Below are positions 9,988 through 51,688 of a DNA stretch of 64,000 bases, piece after piece. This DNA comes from Bacteroidota bacterium (GTDB taxonomy: Bacteria; Bacteroidota; Bacteroidia; UKL13-3), in assembly GCA_030680835.1 (NCBI GenBank), contig JAUXUD010000057.1, positions 62,001 through 126,000 on the forward strand, read 5' to 3'. The position numbers were made by a program, and so were the translations under genes. Below the pieces are notes generated by a model. The model was not told where the DNA came from and ran no database searches. It saw nothing but the letters and a program-made list of their open reading frames with translations. Every line of letters starts with the position of its first letter. Within the stretch, counting starts at the first letter, position 1.

Positions 9988-12831
9988 ATGGAGGAAAAGA
10001 AATTGTTTTTACTGGATGGCATGGCTTTGGTTTACCGCGCTTATTTTGCGTTCAGCCAAAACCCGCGTATAACCAGTTACGGGTTTAATACTTCAGCTAT
10101 TTTTGGATATGTTACTACCTTACTCGATGTGCTTAAAAGAGAAAAGCCAACGCATATCGGTGTATCGTTTGATACGGCAGAACCAACAGCCCGTCATGTT
10201 GAATTTGAAGCTTATAAGGCACACCGGGAAGAAATGCCCGAAGATATCAGCAAGGCTTTGCCTTATATCAGGCAGATTACTGAGGCACTAAATATTCCCT
10301 TATTAATTATTCCCGGTTTTGAAGCGGATGATATTATTGGCACCCTTGCCAAAAAAGCAGCAATGCAGGGATATACGGTTTATATGATGACTCCTGATAA
10401 AGATTTTGGGCAATTGGTTGATGAACATATTTTTATTTATAAGCCCGCCAGGCTGGGTAATGGTATTGAAATAATGGGTGTACCCGAGGTGCTGAGCAAA
10501 TGGGAAATTAAAGATGTAAAACAGGTAATTGATATCCTTGGATTATGGGGCGATGCCGTTGATAATATACCGGGAGTACCGGGTGTGGGTGAAAAAACGG
10601 CGAAGTTATTGGTTCAAAAATATGGAAGCATGGAAGGCCTGTATGAACATACTTATGAGCTAAAAGGAAAGCAAAAAGAAAATGTTGAAAATTTCCGCGA
10701 ACAGGCTTTTCTCTCAAAGAGACTTGCTACCATTGACGTGAATGTACCCATTGAATTTGATGAGAAGAGTTTGACTTTGGATCCACCGAACAGGGCAGAA
10801 ACAGAACGGATATTTGCGGAACTGGAATTTAAAACTTTACTGAAAAGGGTTTTTGGGGAACCGGCCCAGGTGACCGCTCCTTCATTATTTAATCAGGCTC
10901 CGGCATCTTTCGATTTGTTTAACCAGGGCTCTGCCAAAGCATCCGCTACTGAAGTGTTACAAGAAACCAATCTTGAACCCATTGAAACTGCAGAAGAAAA
11001 TTTAGTTACCCACCTAAACATTGAACAGGTACCTCATACTTACGAATTGACAGATACATTTGAAAAACGGATTTTATTATTGCAGTTATTATTAGCCCAG
11101 AAAGAAGTTTGTTTTGATACAGAAACCTCACAACTGGAAAGTACTGAAGCGGATATTGTAGGCCTGTCATTTTCATATGAAGCACATAAGGCATATTATA
11201 TTCCTTTCCTACAAAATTTTGATGAAGCAAAATTGATCTTACAGGAATTCAGACCTGTATTTGAACATCCGGAAATTATAAAAATTGGCCAGAATATCAA
11301 ATACGATTTAAACATCATCAAAAACTATGGTTTAACCCTTAAAGGCCCGATTTTTGATACCATGCTGGCGCATTATATTATTGAACCGGATTTACGACAT
11401 GGAATGGATTTTCTCTCGGGGATTTATTTAAACTATGAGCCGGTGAGCATTGAAACGCTGATTGGCAAAAAAGGTAAAAACCAACTGAGCATGCGCGATG
11501 TGTCTATCGAAAAAATAAAGGAATATGCAGCCGAAGATGCCGATGTTACCTATCAGCTAAAGCAAAAGCTGGAACCTGAATTAATTGCTAAAAACGGAGA
11601 AGATCTTTTAAATAAACTGGAGCTTCCTTTAATAGATGTGTTGAGTGATATGGAACTGGCAGGAATCCGGATCAATGAAAAGTTTTTGAATGATTATTCG
11701 AAAGAACTGGAGTCGGAACTGGCAACGCTCGAAAAGAAAATAATTGAACTGGCGGGTGTGAATTTTAATATTTCATCGCCCAAACAGTTGGGTGAAGTAT
11801 TGTTTGACCACCTGAAGCTTGACCCTAAAGCAAAAAAGACCAAAACAGGCCAGTATCAAACCGGTGAAGATATTCTGCAAGGCCTCAGTCAGCACGAAAT
11901 TATTGGATGTATTTTGCAGGTGCGCCAGTTTCAAAAGTTAAAATCAACCTATGTAGATGCACTGCCCACCATGATTAATCCAAAAACCGGCCGGGTACAT
12001 ACCTCATTTAATCAGGCAGTGGCTGCAACGGGGCGGCTGAGTTCAACAAATCCCAATTTGCAGAATATTCCCATACGTACGGATAGAGGGAAAGAAGTTA
12101 GAAAAGCTTTTATTCCGCGTAATGAAGATTATCTGTTATTAAGTGCCGATTATTCGCAGATTGAGTTGCGTATTATCGCTTCGATTGCGAACGAAGAGGC
12201 GATGATACAGGATTTTAAAAACGGGTTGGACATACATGCAGCTACAGCAGCCAAGGTTTATGGAAAATCGCTGGAGCAGGTAAGCAGCAGTGAACGGCGA
12301 AATGCCAAAGCCGTAAATTTTGGTTTGATCTATGGTCAGTCGGCTTATGGATTAAGTCAGAACTTAGGTATCCCGCGCAAAGAAGCTGCACAGATAATTG
12401 AAGAATATTTTAAGCAGTATCCACGCATCAAAAACTATATGGATGATACCATCAATTTTGCAAAAGAAAATGGGTATGTTGAGACCTTATTGGGCCGAAG
12501 GAGATATTTAAGAGACATTAATTCTGCAAACTTTACGGTTCGTGGCTTTGCTGAACGCAACGCCATCAACGCACCGATACAGGGCAGTGCGGCAGATATG
12601 ATCAAGGTGGCAATGATAAGGATTCACGATGCAATTAAAGACCCTGCTAATGGAATCAGATACTCGAAAATGATTTTGCAGGTGCATGACGAATTATTAT
12701 TTGATGCACATAAAGATGAAGTTGAAATATTAAAAAAACTTGTGGTTAGAAACATGGAGGAAGCTATGCCTTTGCTGGTTCCGGTAAAGGCAGAAGCGGG
12801 GGTGGGGAATAACTGGCTGGAGGCACATTAA
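9988..12831 (+). CDS. polA: DNA polymerase I
   Basis: 947 residues from the ATG at 9988 (MEEKKLFLLDGMALVYRAYF); an earlier in-frame ATG adds only MLFYYLAN. The three domains are in order. The 5'-3' nuclease (about 1-290) has DKDFGQL and the helix-hairpin-helix GVPGVGEKTA. The 3'-5' exonuclease keeps its acidic residues (CFDTETSQLE, NIKYDLNII, YAAEDADVTYQL), so proofreading is likely active. The polymerase has motif A (SADYSQIELR), motif B (RRNAKAVNFGLIYG) and motif C (QVHDELLFD). A Ser/Pro/Gln-rich linker near residues 285-340 separates the nuclease from the exonuclease domain. The protein functions in repair and Okazaki fragment processing. Confidence 0.96.
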   Translation: MEEKKLFLLDGMALVYRAYFAFSQNPRITSYGFNTSAIFGYVTTLLDVLKREKPTHIGVSFDTAEPTARHVEFEAYKAHREEMPEDISKALPYIRQITEALNIPLLIIPGFEADDIIGTLAKKAAMQGYTVYMMTPDKDFGQLVDEHIFIYKPARLGNGIEIMGVPEVLSKWEIKDVKQVIDILGLWGDAVDNIPGVPGVGEKTAKLLVQKYGSMEGLYEHTYELKGKQKENVENFREQAFLSKRLATIDVNVPIEFDEKSLTLDPPNRAETERIFAELEFKTLLKRVFGEPAQVTAPSLFNQAPASFDLFNQGSAKASATEVLQETNLEPIETAEENLVTHLNIEQVPHTYELTDTFEKRILLLQLLLAQKEVCFDTETSQLESTEADIVGLSFSYEAHKAYYIPFLQNFDEAKLILQEFRPVFEHPEIIKIGQNIKYDLNIIKNYGLTLKGPIFDTMLAHYIIEPDLRHGMDFLSGIYLNYEPVSIETLIGKKGKNQLSMRDVSIEKIKEYAAEDADVTYQLKQKLEPELIAKNGEDLLNKLELPLIDVLSDMELAGIRINEKFLNDYSKELESELATLEKKIIELAGVNFNISSPKQLGEVLFDHLKLDPKAKKTKTGQYQTGEDILQGLSQHEIIGCILQVRQFQKLKSTYVDALPTMINPKTGRVHTSFNQAVAATGRLSSTNPNLQNIPIRTDRGKEVRKAFIPRNEDYLLLSADYSQIELRIIASIANEEAMIQDFKNGLDIHAATAAKVYGKSLEQVSSSERRNAKAVNFGLIYGQSAYGLSQNLGIPRKEAAQIIEEYFKQYPRIKNYMDDTINFAKENGYVETLLGRRRYLRDINSANFTVRGFAERNAINAPIQGSAADMIKVAMIRIHDAIKDPANGIRYSKMILQVHDELLFDAHKDEVEILKKLVVRNMEEAMPLLVPVKAEAGVGNNWLEAH

Positions 12832-12840
12832 GGAATTTAT

Positions 12841-12967
12841 GATGTACGATGTACGATGTACAATGTACGATGTACGATGTACAATGTACGATGTACGATG
12901 TACAATGTACAATGTACGATGTACGATATGCAATGTACGCCCCGATAGCTATCGCGGTACAATGTAC
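12841..12967. repeat. Heptad array GATGTAC with an inserted palindrome
   Basis: Fourteen 7-bp units (GATGTAC/AATGTAC, 12841-12938) are interrupted by a 22-bp segment, 12939-12960, after which the array resumes with AATGTAC (12961-12967). The insert contains the palindrome CGATAGCTATCG (12943-12954) and ends in GTAC, duplicating the last four bases of the preceding unit. Confidence 0.92.
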
Positions 12968-14006: not shown

Positions 14007-14552
14007 ATGAACACCTATATATCCATTTTAAGAGGAATTAATGTGAGCGGCCATCGAGTCATTAAGATGGATGCATTGAAAAAACTATATGCTGATTTGA
14101 ACCTGAAAAATATACGGACTTATATTCAAAGTGGTAATGTTGTTTTTGAAGAAAAAGATTCGAATCCTAAACTCATAGCAAAACTAATATCTCAAAAAAT
14201 AATGAAGGATTTTGGGTTTGAAGTTCCGGTAATCGTATTGGATTTACCGGATTTAACAACGATTCTGGAAAATAATCCGTTTGTAAATGAAAGAGCAGAG
14301 GATGTTAAATTTTTACATGTAACCTTATTGTCGGATTATCCGGATCCATCAGATATCGATAAAATTAAAGCCGGACCATACGGTGCTGATGAATTTATTG
14401 TTTCGGGCCGAACCCTTTATTTGTTTTGTCCTGCGGGGTATGGAAATACGAAGCTGAGTAATACTTTTTTTGAAAGCAAACTTAAGGTAAGTGCTACGAC
14501 CAGGAATTGGAAAACCATGAATGAATTGTGGAGGATTGCAGCGGGGAATTAA
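14007..14552 (+). CDS. DUF1697 family protein
   Basis: 181 residues. The opening YISILRGINVSGHRVIKMDALKKLY and the following IQSGNVVFE are diagnostic of DUF1697. The later GRTLYLFCPAGYGNTKLSN and TTRNWKTMNEL complete the domain. The biochemical function of this family is not established. The last codons (Ala-Ala-Gly-Asn-stop) fall in a 22-bp sequence repeated exactly at 24084-24105, so a mobile or dispersed repeat forms the 3' end of the gene. Confidence 0.85.
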   Translation: MNTYISILRGINVSGHRVIKMDALKKLYADLNLKNIRTYIQSGNVVFEEKDSNPKLIAKLISQKIMKDFGFEVPVIVLDLPDLTTILENNPFVNERAEDVKFLHVTLLSDYPDPSDIDKIKAGPYGADEFIVSGRTLYLFCPAGYGNTKLSNTFFESKLKVSATTRNWKTMNELWRIAAGN

Positions 14553-14612
14553 ACACATAGAACATAGATTCACATAGAATACACATAGAAAAATCTATGT
14601 GTATTCTATGTG
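14539..14612. repeat. Dispersed hairpin repeat, copy 1 (CACATAG family)
   Basis: A 22-bp segment (14539-14560) identical to 24084-24105 is followed by CATAG-rich units. A perfect 19-bp stem comes next: 14571-14589 pairs with 14594-14612 across a 4-nt A loop. The stem contains CACATAG twice on one arm. It lies between convergent genes and could act as a terminator, although the GC content of the stem is low. Confidence 0.85.
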
Positions 14613-14670
14613 TTTTCCTATTGTGCCTATGTGTTTTATTTTCATTCGGCTAATAGCAATCATCTAAAAG

Positions 14671-15258
14671 TTAAACAAACTCAAAACCGGAAATAATAAT
14701 TACACTATTCACATTACTTGCTAATGTAATTTCAAATTCCTCCTCAATATCTTCAATCACGAAACTCATTCCTTCAGAAATTTCAATTTGCCGTTCTTTA
14801 CAAGTTAAAACAGCATTTCCCCGGTACGCATAAAAATGAAGCAGTTTTGTTGCGGCTGAAAATTGAATTTGTTGCGGCTCATTTGCCTCCAGTTCAATGG
14901 CATTCAATGATGATTGAATATTCCCTTTTGTCATTACATTATAATCCGCCCCGGTTCCTTTACATAACGTATTCCAATCGCCTTGAAAGGTGTCGGTATC
15001 ATAAGGCAGCAATAAGGTGGTGTAGCGGGCCGGATGTTCAATTAGCAGTGCGCCTTCGAGAACCAATAGTTTACGGTCAATATCGGGTAATGAAGTAAAA
15101 ACAGATTGAATTCTTTCGATGCTGGCCCTGCTGATGCGGATAGAAAAGTTTTTTTCGGTATATGTTGACTTATCCGGATAAATGTAAAGTTGCCATACCG
15201 AGCCACCCTCCCATTTGGTTTGCGTATAGTGTTCAGCATTATATAAGGTAGTTTTCAT
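14671..15258 (-). CDS. HutD/Ves family protein
   Basis: 195 residues. The pattern TKWEGGSVWQLYIYP, then FSIRISRASIE, FTSLPDIDRKLLVLEGALLI and FQGDWNTLCKGTGADYNVMTKG matches the cupin-like HutD/Ves family. HutD is often linked to histidine utilisation, where it is proposed to limit pathway flux. The only histidine-degradation gene visible here is ftcD, about 17 kb away, so a link is possible but unproven. The gene stands alone with no operon partner. Confidence 0.8.
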   Translation of the reverse strand: MKTTLYNAEHYTQTKWEGGSVWQLYIYPDKSTYTEKNFSIRISRASIERIQSVFTSLPDIDRKLLVLEGALLIEHPARYTTLLLPYDTDTFQGDWNTLCKGTGADYNVMTKGNIQSSLNAIELEANEPQQIQFSAATKLLHFYAYRGNAVLTCKERQIEISEGMSFVIEDIEEEFEITLASNVNSVIIISGFEFV

Positions 15259-24083: not shown

Positions 24084-24157
24084 CAGCGGGGAATTAAACA
24101 CATAGGCATATAGATTCACATAGGTTTCACATAGTTTTTCTATGTGAAACCTATGTG
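24084..24157. repeat. Dispersed hairpin repeat, copy 2 (CACATAG family)
   Basis: It starts with the 22 bp shared exactly with 14539-14560, then CATAG-rich units and a perfect 18-bp stem (24117-24134 with 24140-24157) around a 5-T loop. The stem sequence differs from copy 1 but is compensated on both arms. It lies in the mrp/DUF1624 gap. Confidence 0.88.
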
Positions 24158-24184
24158 GTACTATGTGTTTAAGTGTTTATTTTT

Positions 24185-51652: not shown

Positions 51653-51688
51653 AAAAAAGCCCATCACGAAAATCGTGATGGGCTTTTT
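51653..51688. terminator. Bidirectional intrinsic terminator
   Basis: AAAAAA, then stem GCCCATCACGA (51659-51669), loop AAA, stem TCGTGATGGGC (51673-51683), then TTTTT. A strong terminator, downstream of the hypothetical gene on the plus strand and of the giant CHU_C gene on the minus strand. Confidence 0.95.

What the first reader, a model, noticed from the sequence alone, without database searches (positions are those of the whole stretch)
14539..14612. Two copies of a CACATAG hairpin element sharing a 22-bp start but with different stems
Seen: 14539-14560 and 24084-24105 are identical, yet the following perfect stems (19 bp and 18 bp) differ in sequence with both arms changed together. Covariation like this suggests the hairpin form is what is kept. 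In copy 1 the shared end also encodes the last residues and stop of the DUF1697 gene.
Basis: seen in the sequence. Interest (0 to 1): 0.5.

Follow-up and report, generated by a model that had tools for sequence, protein, structure and literature searches.

The report
Dispersed hairpin repeats behind bacterial genes
The two hairpins are copies of a dispersed, roughly 90-letter palindromic DNA repeat that sits just behind genes in this bacterium and serves as a landing site for a jumping element; it resembles known bacterial repeats but appears to be an undescribed kind in its phylum.

Summary
Both hairpins exist at the stated coordinates (19-bp stem, 4-nt loop; 18-bp stem, 5-nt loop) and exceed chance. 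They are cores of two copies of a longer imperfect palindrome (14549-14638, 24094-24172). The window's genome holds 22 places with this repeat, mostly 0-45 bp behind a stop codon; none of 19 classifiable copies lies between divergent genes. A same-genus genome with both neighbourhoods lacks both copies, and its DUF1697 ends differently, so copy 1 looks like an insertion that re-cut the gene's end. Covariation is real but thin (8 double-changed cells of 522; 3 from copy 1). In another genome (G043) the arms' variable bases do not compensate, so selection for pairing is not shown. All seven junctions seen of an IS110-family element lie in this repeat (six) or a CTATG-rich stretch like it (one); its non-coding end carries candidate bridge-RNA guides matching CACATAG. 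Similar CAC-NN-AG "heptamer ladder" palindromes occur in 27 of 119 genomes of the class. Y1 transposase genes usually lack them nearby, so it is not a classical REP/RAYT system. Best reading: a non-autonomous mobile intergenic palindrome (mover unknown), used as an IS110 landing pad; a 3'-end RNA role is possible but unshown.

The parts
14549..14638 (.). Copy 1: whole composite palindrome (TTAAACACATAG ... CTATGTGTTTTA)
   Evidence: Covariance-model match G000:C30:76549-76638, E 7e-20; sequence
14543..14548 (+). Copy 1: purine-rich end GGGGAA shared with many copies; with TTAA it supplies the stop of DUF1697
14571..14612 (.). Copy 1: inner perfect hairpin, 19-bp stem, 4-nt loop
14007..14552 (+). 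DUF1697 gene whose last codons and stop come from the repeat's end
   Evidence: PF08002 E 9.6e-41; orthologue in G018 ends differently
14671..15258 (-). Convergent neighbour of copy 1 (195 aa); its stop lies 32 bp from the palindrome
24094..24172 (.). Copy 2: whole composite palindrome (TTAAACACATAGGC ... CTATGTGTTTAA)
   Evidence: Covariance-model match G000:C30:86094-86172, E 1.5e-14; sequence
24088..24093 (+). Copy 2: purine-rich end GGGGAA
24117..24157 (.). Copy 2: inner perfect hairpin, 18-bp stem, 5-nt loop
24185..25366 (-). Gene (HGSNAT_cat/acyltransferase-like) whose 3' end lies 12 bp from copy 2

Best explanation
The feature is a non-autonomous, dispersed composite palindrome of about 80-95 bp: two to four CACATAG heptamers per arm, spaced about 8-11 bp apart, facing their inverted copies across a short loop, with a purine-rich GGGGGAATT end and often an A-run at the other end. 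It spreads or is copied within the genome by machinery not identified here, and is retained mainly just behind stop codons, where it does little harm because it gives stops in all three frames and avoids promoters. There it is recognised by an IS110-family recombinase: inferred bridge-RNA guides (CACAUAG for the right target) direct insertion at the CT between the two outermost heptamers. Shown: dispersal, location, absence of both window copies in a syntenic relative, IS110 insertions in the repeat. Inferred: active mobility, bridge-RNA guidance, any RNA-level 3'-end role.
For: 22 places in the own genome at E up to 0.0075. Of 18 same-genus genomes, 17 had no match; G003 had one weak, uninspected place. 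Both window loci lack the repeat in syntenic G018. 9 convergent, 10 tandem, 0 divergent of 19 classifiable copies; 18 of 21 within 45 bp of a stop, median 18 bp. IS110 transposase (PF01548, PF02371). Of the IS junctions seen, 3 of 3 RE and 3 of 4 LE lie in the repeat; the fourth LE (C41) lies in a related CCTATGTGTCTATG stretch. The non-coding end holds CACATAG (right-target guide) and ACAGAAT (left-donor guide) in bridge-RNA order; 7-mers of both guides in that order occur in 6 of 2000 mononucleotide shuffles.
Against: No transposase carrying this repeat as its ends was found, and no target-site duplication was demonstrated; G018 is too diverged (62-70% protein identity) for a clean empty site. 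Location statistics are weak (P about 0.05 and 0.03, background from 52 rough gene calls in one window). Single guide 7-mers arise in about 6% of shuffles each, and left-target matches are only 5-6 consecutive bases.
Confidence: 0.6

Rival explanations
1. A structured 3'-end RNA element (bidirectional terminator or 3' exonuclease barrier) kept by selection on the transcribed hairpin.
For: Position right behind stops, 9 of 19 between convergent genes; very stable folds, 22 copies, median -42.8 kcal/mol; compensatory changes.
Against: No U-tract: 3 of 35 readable ends have 6 or more T in 10 nt, 9 have 6 or more A; the genome has an ordinary terminator with a T-tract at 51654-51688. Absent at the syntenic loci of G018. 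No Rfam family over its threshold (8 loci).
Confidence: 0.2
2. A REP sequence mobilised by a REP-associated tyrosine transposase (RAYT / TnpA-REP).
For: Dispersed intergenic palindromes; Y1 transposases in the genome (3); subclass 2.6 of Bacteroidetes is reported to have atypical REPs (PMC6006769, section 25 and passages).
Against: None of the 3 own Y1 loci has CACATAG within about 1.5 kb; 37 of 40 Y1 loci from other genomes lack a paired CAC-NN-AG (or CRC-NN-AG) motif nearby. No GTAG foot. Y1 genes seen here sit with other, GC-rich repeats.
Confidence: 0.1
3. The matched arm changes are mutational: template switching at quasi-palindromes copies one arm onto the other, without selection for pairing.
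For: The inner stems are often perfect while outer arms are bulged; heptamers and spacers are shuffled between copies, e.g. the AATA spacer of copy 1 recurs at another position in C58.
Against: In G043 arms remain mismatched at 22 of 30 heptamer pairs, so copying is not universal.
Confidence: 0.1

Closest known systems
REP sequences / REPINs (GTAG- and CGTC-tagged repeats)
   Same: Dispersed intergenic palindromes, and known targets of insertion sequences (PMC1525189 abstract; PMC3733652 abstract start and one passage)
   Different: About 80-95 bp heptamer ladder, no GTAG foot, no Y1 transposase partner found
ERIC / MITE-type imperfect palindromes
   Same: Length, one large imperfect palindrome, non-coding, able to fold when transcribed (ERIC properties recalled, plus passages of PMC2267715)
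   Different: Tandem CACATAG heptamers; no parent IS with these ends and no target duplication found
IS621 and its REP target (IS110 family bridge RNA)
   Same: IS110 recombinase, CT core, insertion into a repeated palindrome, guides in the upstream non-coding end (PMC11208160 passages)
   Different: The target here is the CACATAG palindrome; guide matches are partial and untested

Membership tests
REP / RAYT system | Short palindrome with GTAG (or CGTC) foot | tested here: not met
   Ends are AATTAAACACATAG-like; no GTAG/CGTC foot at the ends of the copies printed (read by eye)
REP / RAYT system | Copies flanking a Y1 transposase gene | tested here: not met
   0 of 3 own Y1 loci; 3 of 40 other Y1 loci have a paired heptamer motif nearby
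MITE | Short non-coding element with terminal inverted repeats | tested here: met
   Outer helix 93.8% of cells paired; GGGGG-type ends on both sides in C13 and AGGAGG-type on both in C43
MITE | Target-site duplication and a parent IS with the same ends | tested here: inconclusive
   Absent in G018 but flanks too diverged to see a duplication; no parent IS recognised, but flanking ORFs were only located, not identified
Intrinsic terminator | Stem followed directly by a U-tract | tested here: not met
   3 of 35 readable ends
Conserved structured RNA | Compensatory changes and a described family | tested here: inconclusive
   8 double-changed cells against 2.3 in shuffles; no Rfam match over gathering score on the 8 loci searched
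IS110 element (the insert, not the repeat) | DEDD_Tnp_IS110 and Transposase_20 domains | tested here: met
   E 2.2e-21 and 2.5e-25
IS110 element (the insert, not the repeat) | Bridge RNA with guides for target and donor | tested here: inconclusive
   Right-target and left-donor 7-mers present in order; left-target and right-donor matches weak

The most novel reading that the evidence does not exclude
A superfamily of 'heptamer-ladder' palindromes runs through the Bacteroidota: arms built of CAC-NN-AG heptamers at near one-helical-turn spacing, with NN and the outer shell replaced between genomes (CACATAG, CACAAAG, CACAGAG, CACTAAG, CACGAAG) and even between copies. It would be moved and recognised by an unknown protein that reads the CAC..AG ladder on double-stranded or hairpin DNA, not by Y1 transposases, and IS110 elements have reprogrammed their bridge RNAs to use it as a safe harbour.
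Probability: 0.3. Interest if true: 0.6.

Novelty: new variant of a known kind. Interest (0 to 1): 0.4.

Why it matters
Dispersed palindromes shape 3' ends, genome rearrangement and transposon targeting in Proteobacteria. A Bacteroidota counterpart without a Y1 partner would mean another, unidentified mover. The IS110 junctions give a natural test case for how bridge RNAs settle on repeated, harmless sites.

Tried and rejected
Flavo-1 RNA: the Rfam hit in L049 lies elsewhere in the locus (2396-2506), not on the hairpin, and is below threshold. miRNA-family hits on the hairpins are far below gathering score and reflect hairpin shape only.

RAYT partner: tested on 3 own and 40 other Y1 loci; rejected. 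Of the three exceptions, L231 has a ladder about 1.3 kb from the gene and L240 a single paired motif on one strand; L266 has four CRC-NN-AG motifs near the gene and was not followed further.

Phage or plasmid origin: no hit for an 18-base arm in viral contigs and none for one copy in plasmids. IS110 beside the repeats in other organisms: none among the 151 loci scanned with tblastn apart from the own-genome locus L181.

Literature: nine searches answered; none listed a paper that I could recognise as describing this repeat. Literal heptamer-pair strings gave one unrelated eDNA paper. The library holds open-licence papers only. RepRanger (PMC12306157, one passage) counts palindromes in two Flavobacterium genomes but I saw no sequences there.

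One search's comparison of arms within and between copies is not used: it was not register-aligned. In one search the second set of ten elements mixes three genomes with different heptamers, so its high match (16 of 27) is not evidence of covariation. G003's weak match (L051) was not inspected. Repeat C60 (E 0.64) was dropped from the count of 22. C85b and C10:31144 (cut by IS110) and C60 were left out of alignment A3 (20 rows). The binomial test was first run with n 20 and corrected to n 19.

Full report
Observation. The two stretches are identical over 22 bases and are followed by perfect stems of 19 and 18 bp with 4- and 5-nt loops. Twenty dinucleotide shuffles of the window gave no stem of 16 bp or more, and CACATAG is enriched, 14 against 5.4 expected, 12 of the 14 within the two elements. 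CTATGTGTTT.

Genome-wide family. A covariance model from 12 copies finds 22 distinct places in the window's genome (4.3 Mb, 104 contigs) at E up to 0.0075, usually on both strands because the element is palindromic; one further place at E 0.64 was dropped. The 12 copies match by construction. Two inner types occur: CACATAG-GTTT-CACATAG and CCATAGG-CACATAG. Copy 1 has AATA in place of GTTT, with TATT opposite. The same AATA spacer appears at another position in copy C58, which points to shuffling of modules.

Ends. Many ends read outward as TTAATTCCCCC or TTAATTCTTCC (18 of 35 readable ends have such a pyrimidine run) and 9 of 35 are A-rich; only 3 of 35 are T-rich. The consensus purine-rich end followed by the first heptamers contains stops in all three frames.

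Place. With rough ORF calling, 9 of 19 classifiable copies lie between convergent genes, 10 between tandem genes and none between divergent genes; 18 of 21 lie within 45 bp of a stop codon, median 18. Against the window's own intergenic lengths (52 called genes), this gives P 0.05 for no divergent and 0.03 for the convergent excess, so the bias is suggestive rather than strong.

Insertion. G018, the one same-genus genome with both neighbourhoods (contig C52), has no repeat at either place. Its DUF1697 ends KIAKEMA-stop; here it ends RIAAGN-stop, with G-N-stop read from GGGGAATTAA. This fits an insertion into the last codons of the gene. Protein identity is 62-70%, too low to see a clean empty site or target duplication. 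Of 18 same-genus genomes, 17 had no match and G003 one weak, uninspected place.

Covariation. On 20 copies and 29 pairs, 94.1% of cells pair, 5 pairs have double changes, 8 cells against 2.3 in shuffles. Three of the eight are copy 1's. Ten of the 29 pairs never vary. In G043, ten elements with variable heptamers (CAC-N-AAG) match across arms in 8 of 30 heptamer pairs, 12.0 expected by shuffling. There, pairing of the variable base is not maintained, though CAC..AG is.

IS110. A 344-aa IS110-family transposase lies in contig C10, and five further contigs (C41, C58, C85, C98, C99) break off inside copies of the same element. All three RE junctions (C10, C98, C99) follow AATTAAACACATAG; LE junctions in C10, C58 and C85 lie in the repeat; the fourth (C41) lies in a CCTATGTGTCTATG stretch that the model did not report. 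In the transposase sense the target reads CTATGTGT-CT-ATGTGTTT, with the CT core also used by IS621 (PMC11208160, passages). The 248-nt upstream non-coding end holds, in bridge-RNA order, a weak left-target match, CACATAG (right target), ACAGAAT (left donor) and a weak right-donor match; 7-mers of the two strong guides occur in order in 6 of 2000 mononucleotide shuffles. This is inference from sequence, not a demonstrated bridge RNA. REP sequences as insertion-sequence targets are established (PMC1525189, abstract).

Relatives. The Flavobacterium copies listed share the terminal arms but have a different interior. A looser pattern, CCACNNAGRNACNNAG...CTNNGTG, matches in 27 of 119 genomes of the class, while its backward control matches in one. 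Heptamers include CACATAG, CACAAAG, CACAGAG, CACTAAG and CACGAAG. In G043 the ladder sits in at least two outer shells, GTTACTATTC... and AGACCTCTTG.... The genome's name was not determined; Bacteroidota is inferred from these relatives.

What it is not. Not an ordinary terminator: U-tracts are lacking, while the window has a textbook one at 51654-51688. Not a RAYT-linked REP on present evidence: 0 of 3 own and 3 of 40 other Y1 loci have ladder motifs nearby. The reported atypical REPs of Bacteroidetes subclass 2.6 (PMC6006769, section 25 and passages) could not be compared by sequence. No Rfam family matches over threshold.

Verdict. A real, dispersed, probably mobile palindrome and IS110 landing site; a new variant of the known kind 'bacterial intergenic palindromic repeat'. 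The mover and any RNA role are open.

Noticed in passing
window 51654-51688: Perfect 16-bp stem followed by a T-tract: an ordinary intrinsic terminator, useful contrast to the CACATAG repeats.
   Followed up: partly
window 12841-12939: Tandem array of a 7-bp unit (GATGTAC, 14 copies) behind the gene ending at 12831, which reads like DNA polymerase I (gene name recalled from its sequence).
   Followed up: no
L027-L029 (own genome C45, C42, C72): Three Y1 transposase genes, each beside its own GC-rich short palindromes or repeats (e.g. CCCCTTCGGGG units), i.e. REP-like families distinct from CACATAG.
   Followed up: partly
L209-L218 (G043): Ladder palindromes with the fourth heptamer base usually mismatched between arms (22 of 30 pairs; P 0.04 for so few matches) and two different outer inverted repeats in one genome.
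   Followed up: partly
L060-L137 (Flavobacterium): Related elements with a conserved GGCGTTTCACTT stretch and small inner palindromes (CACATAGCTATGTG, GAAACTAGTTTC) inside the CACATAG arms.
   Followed up: no
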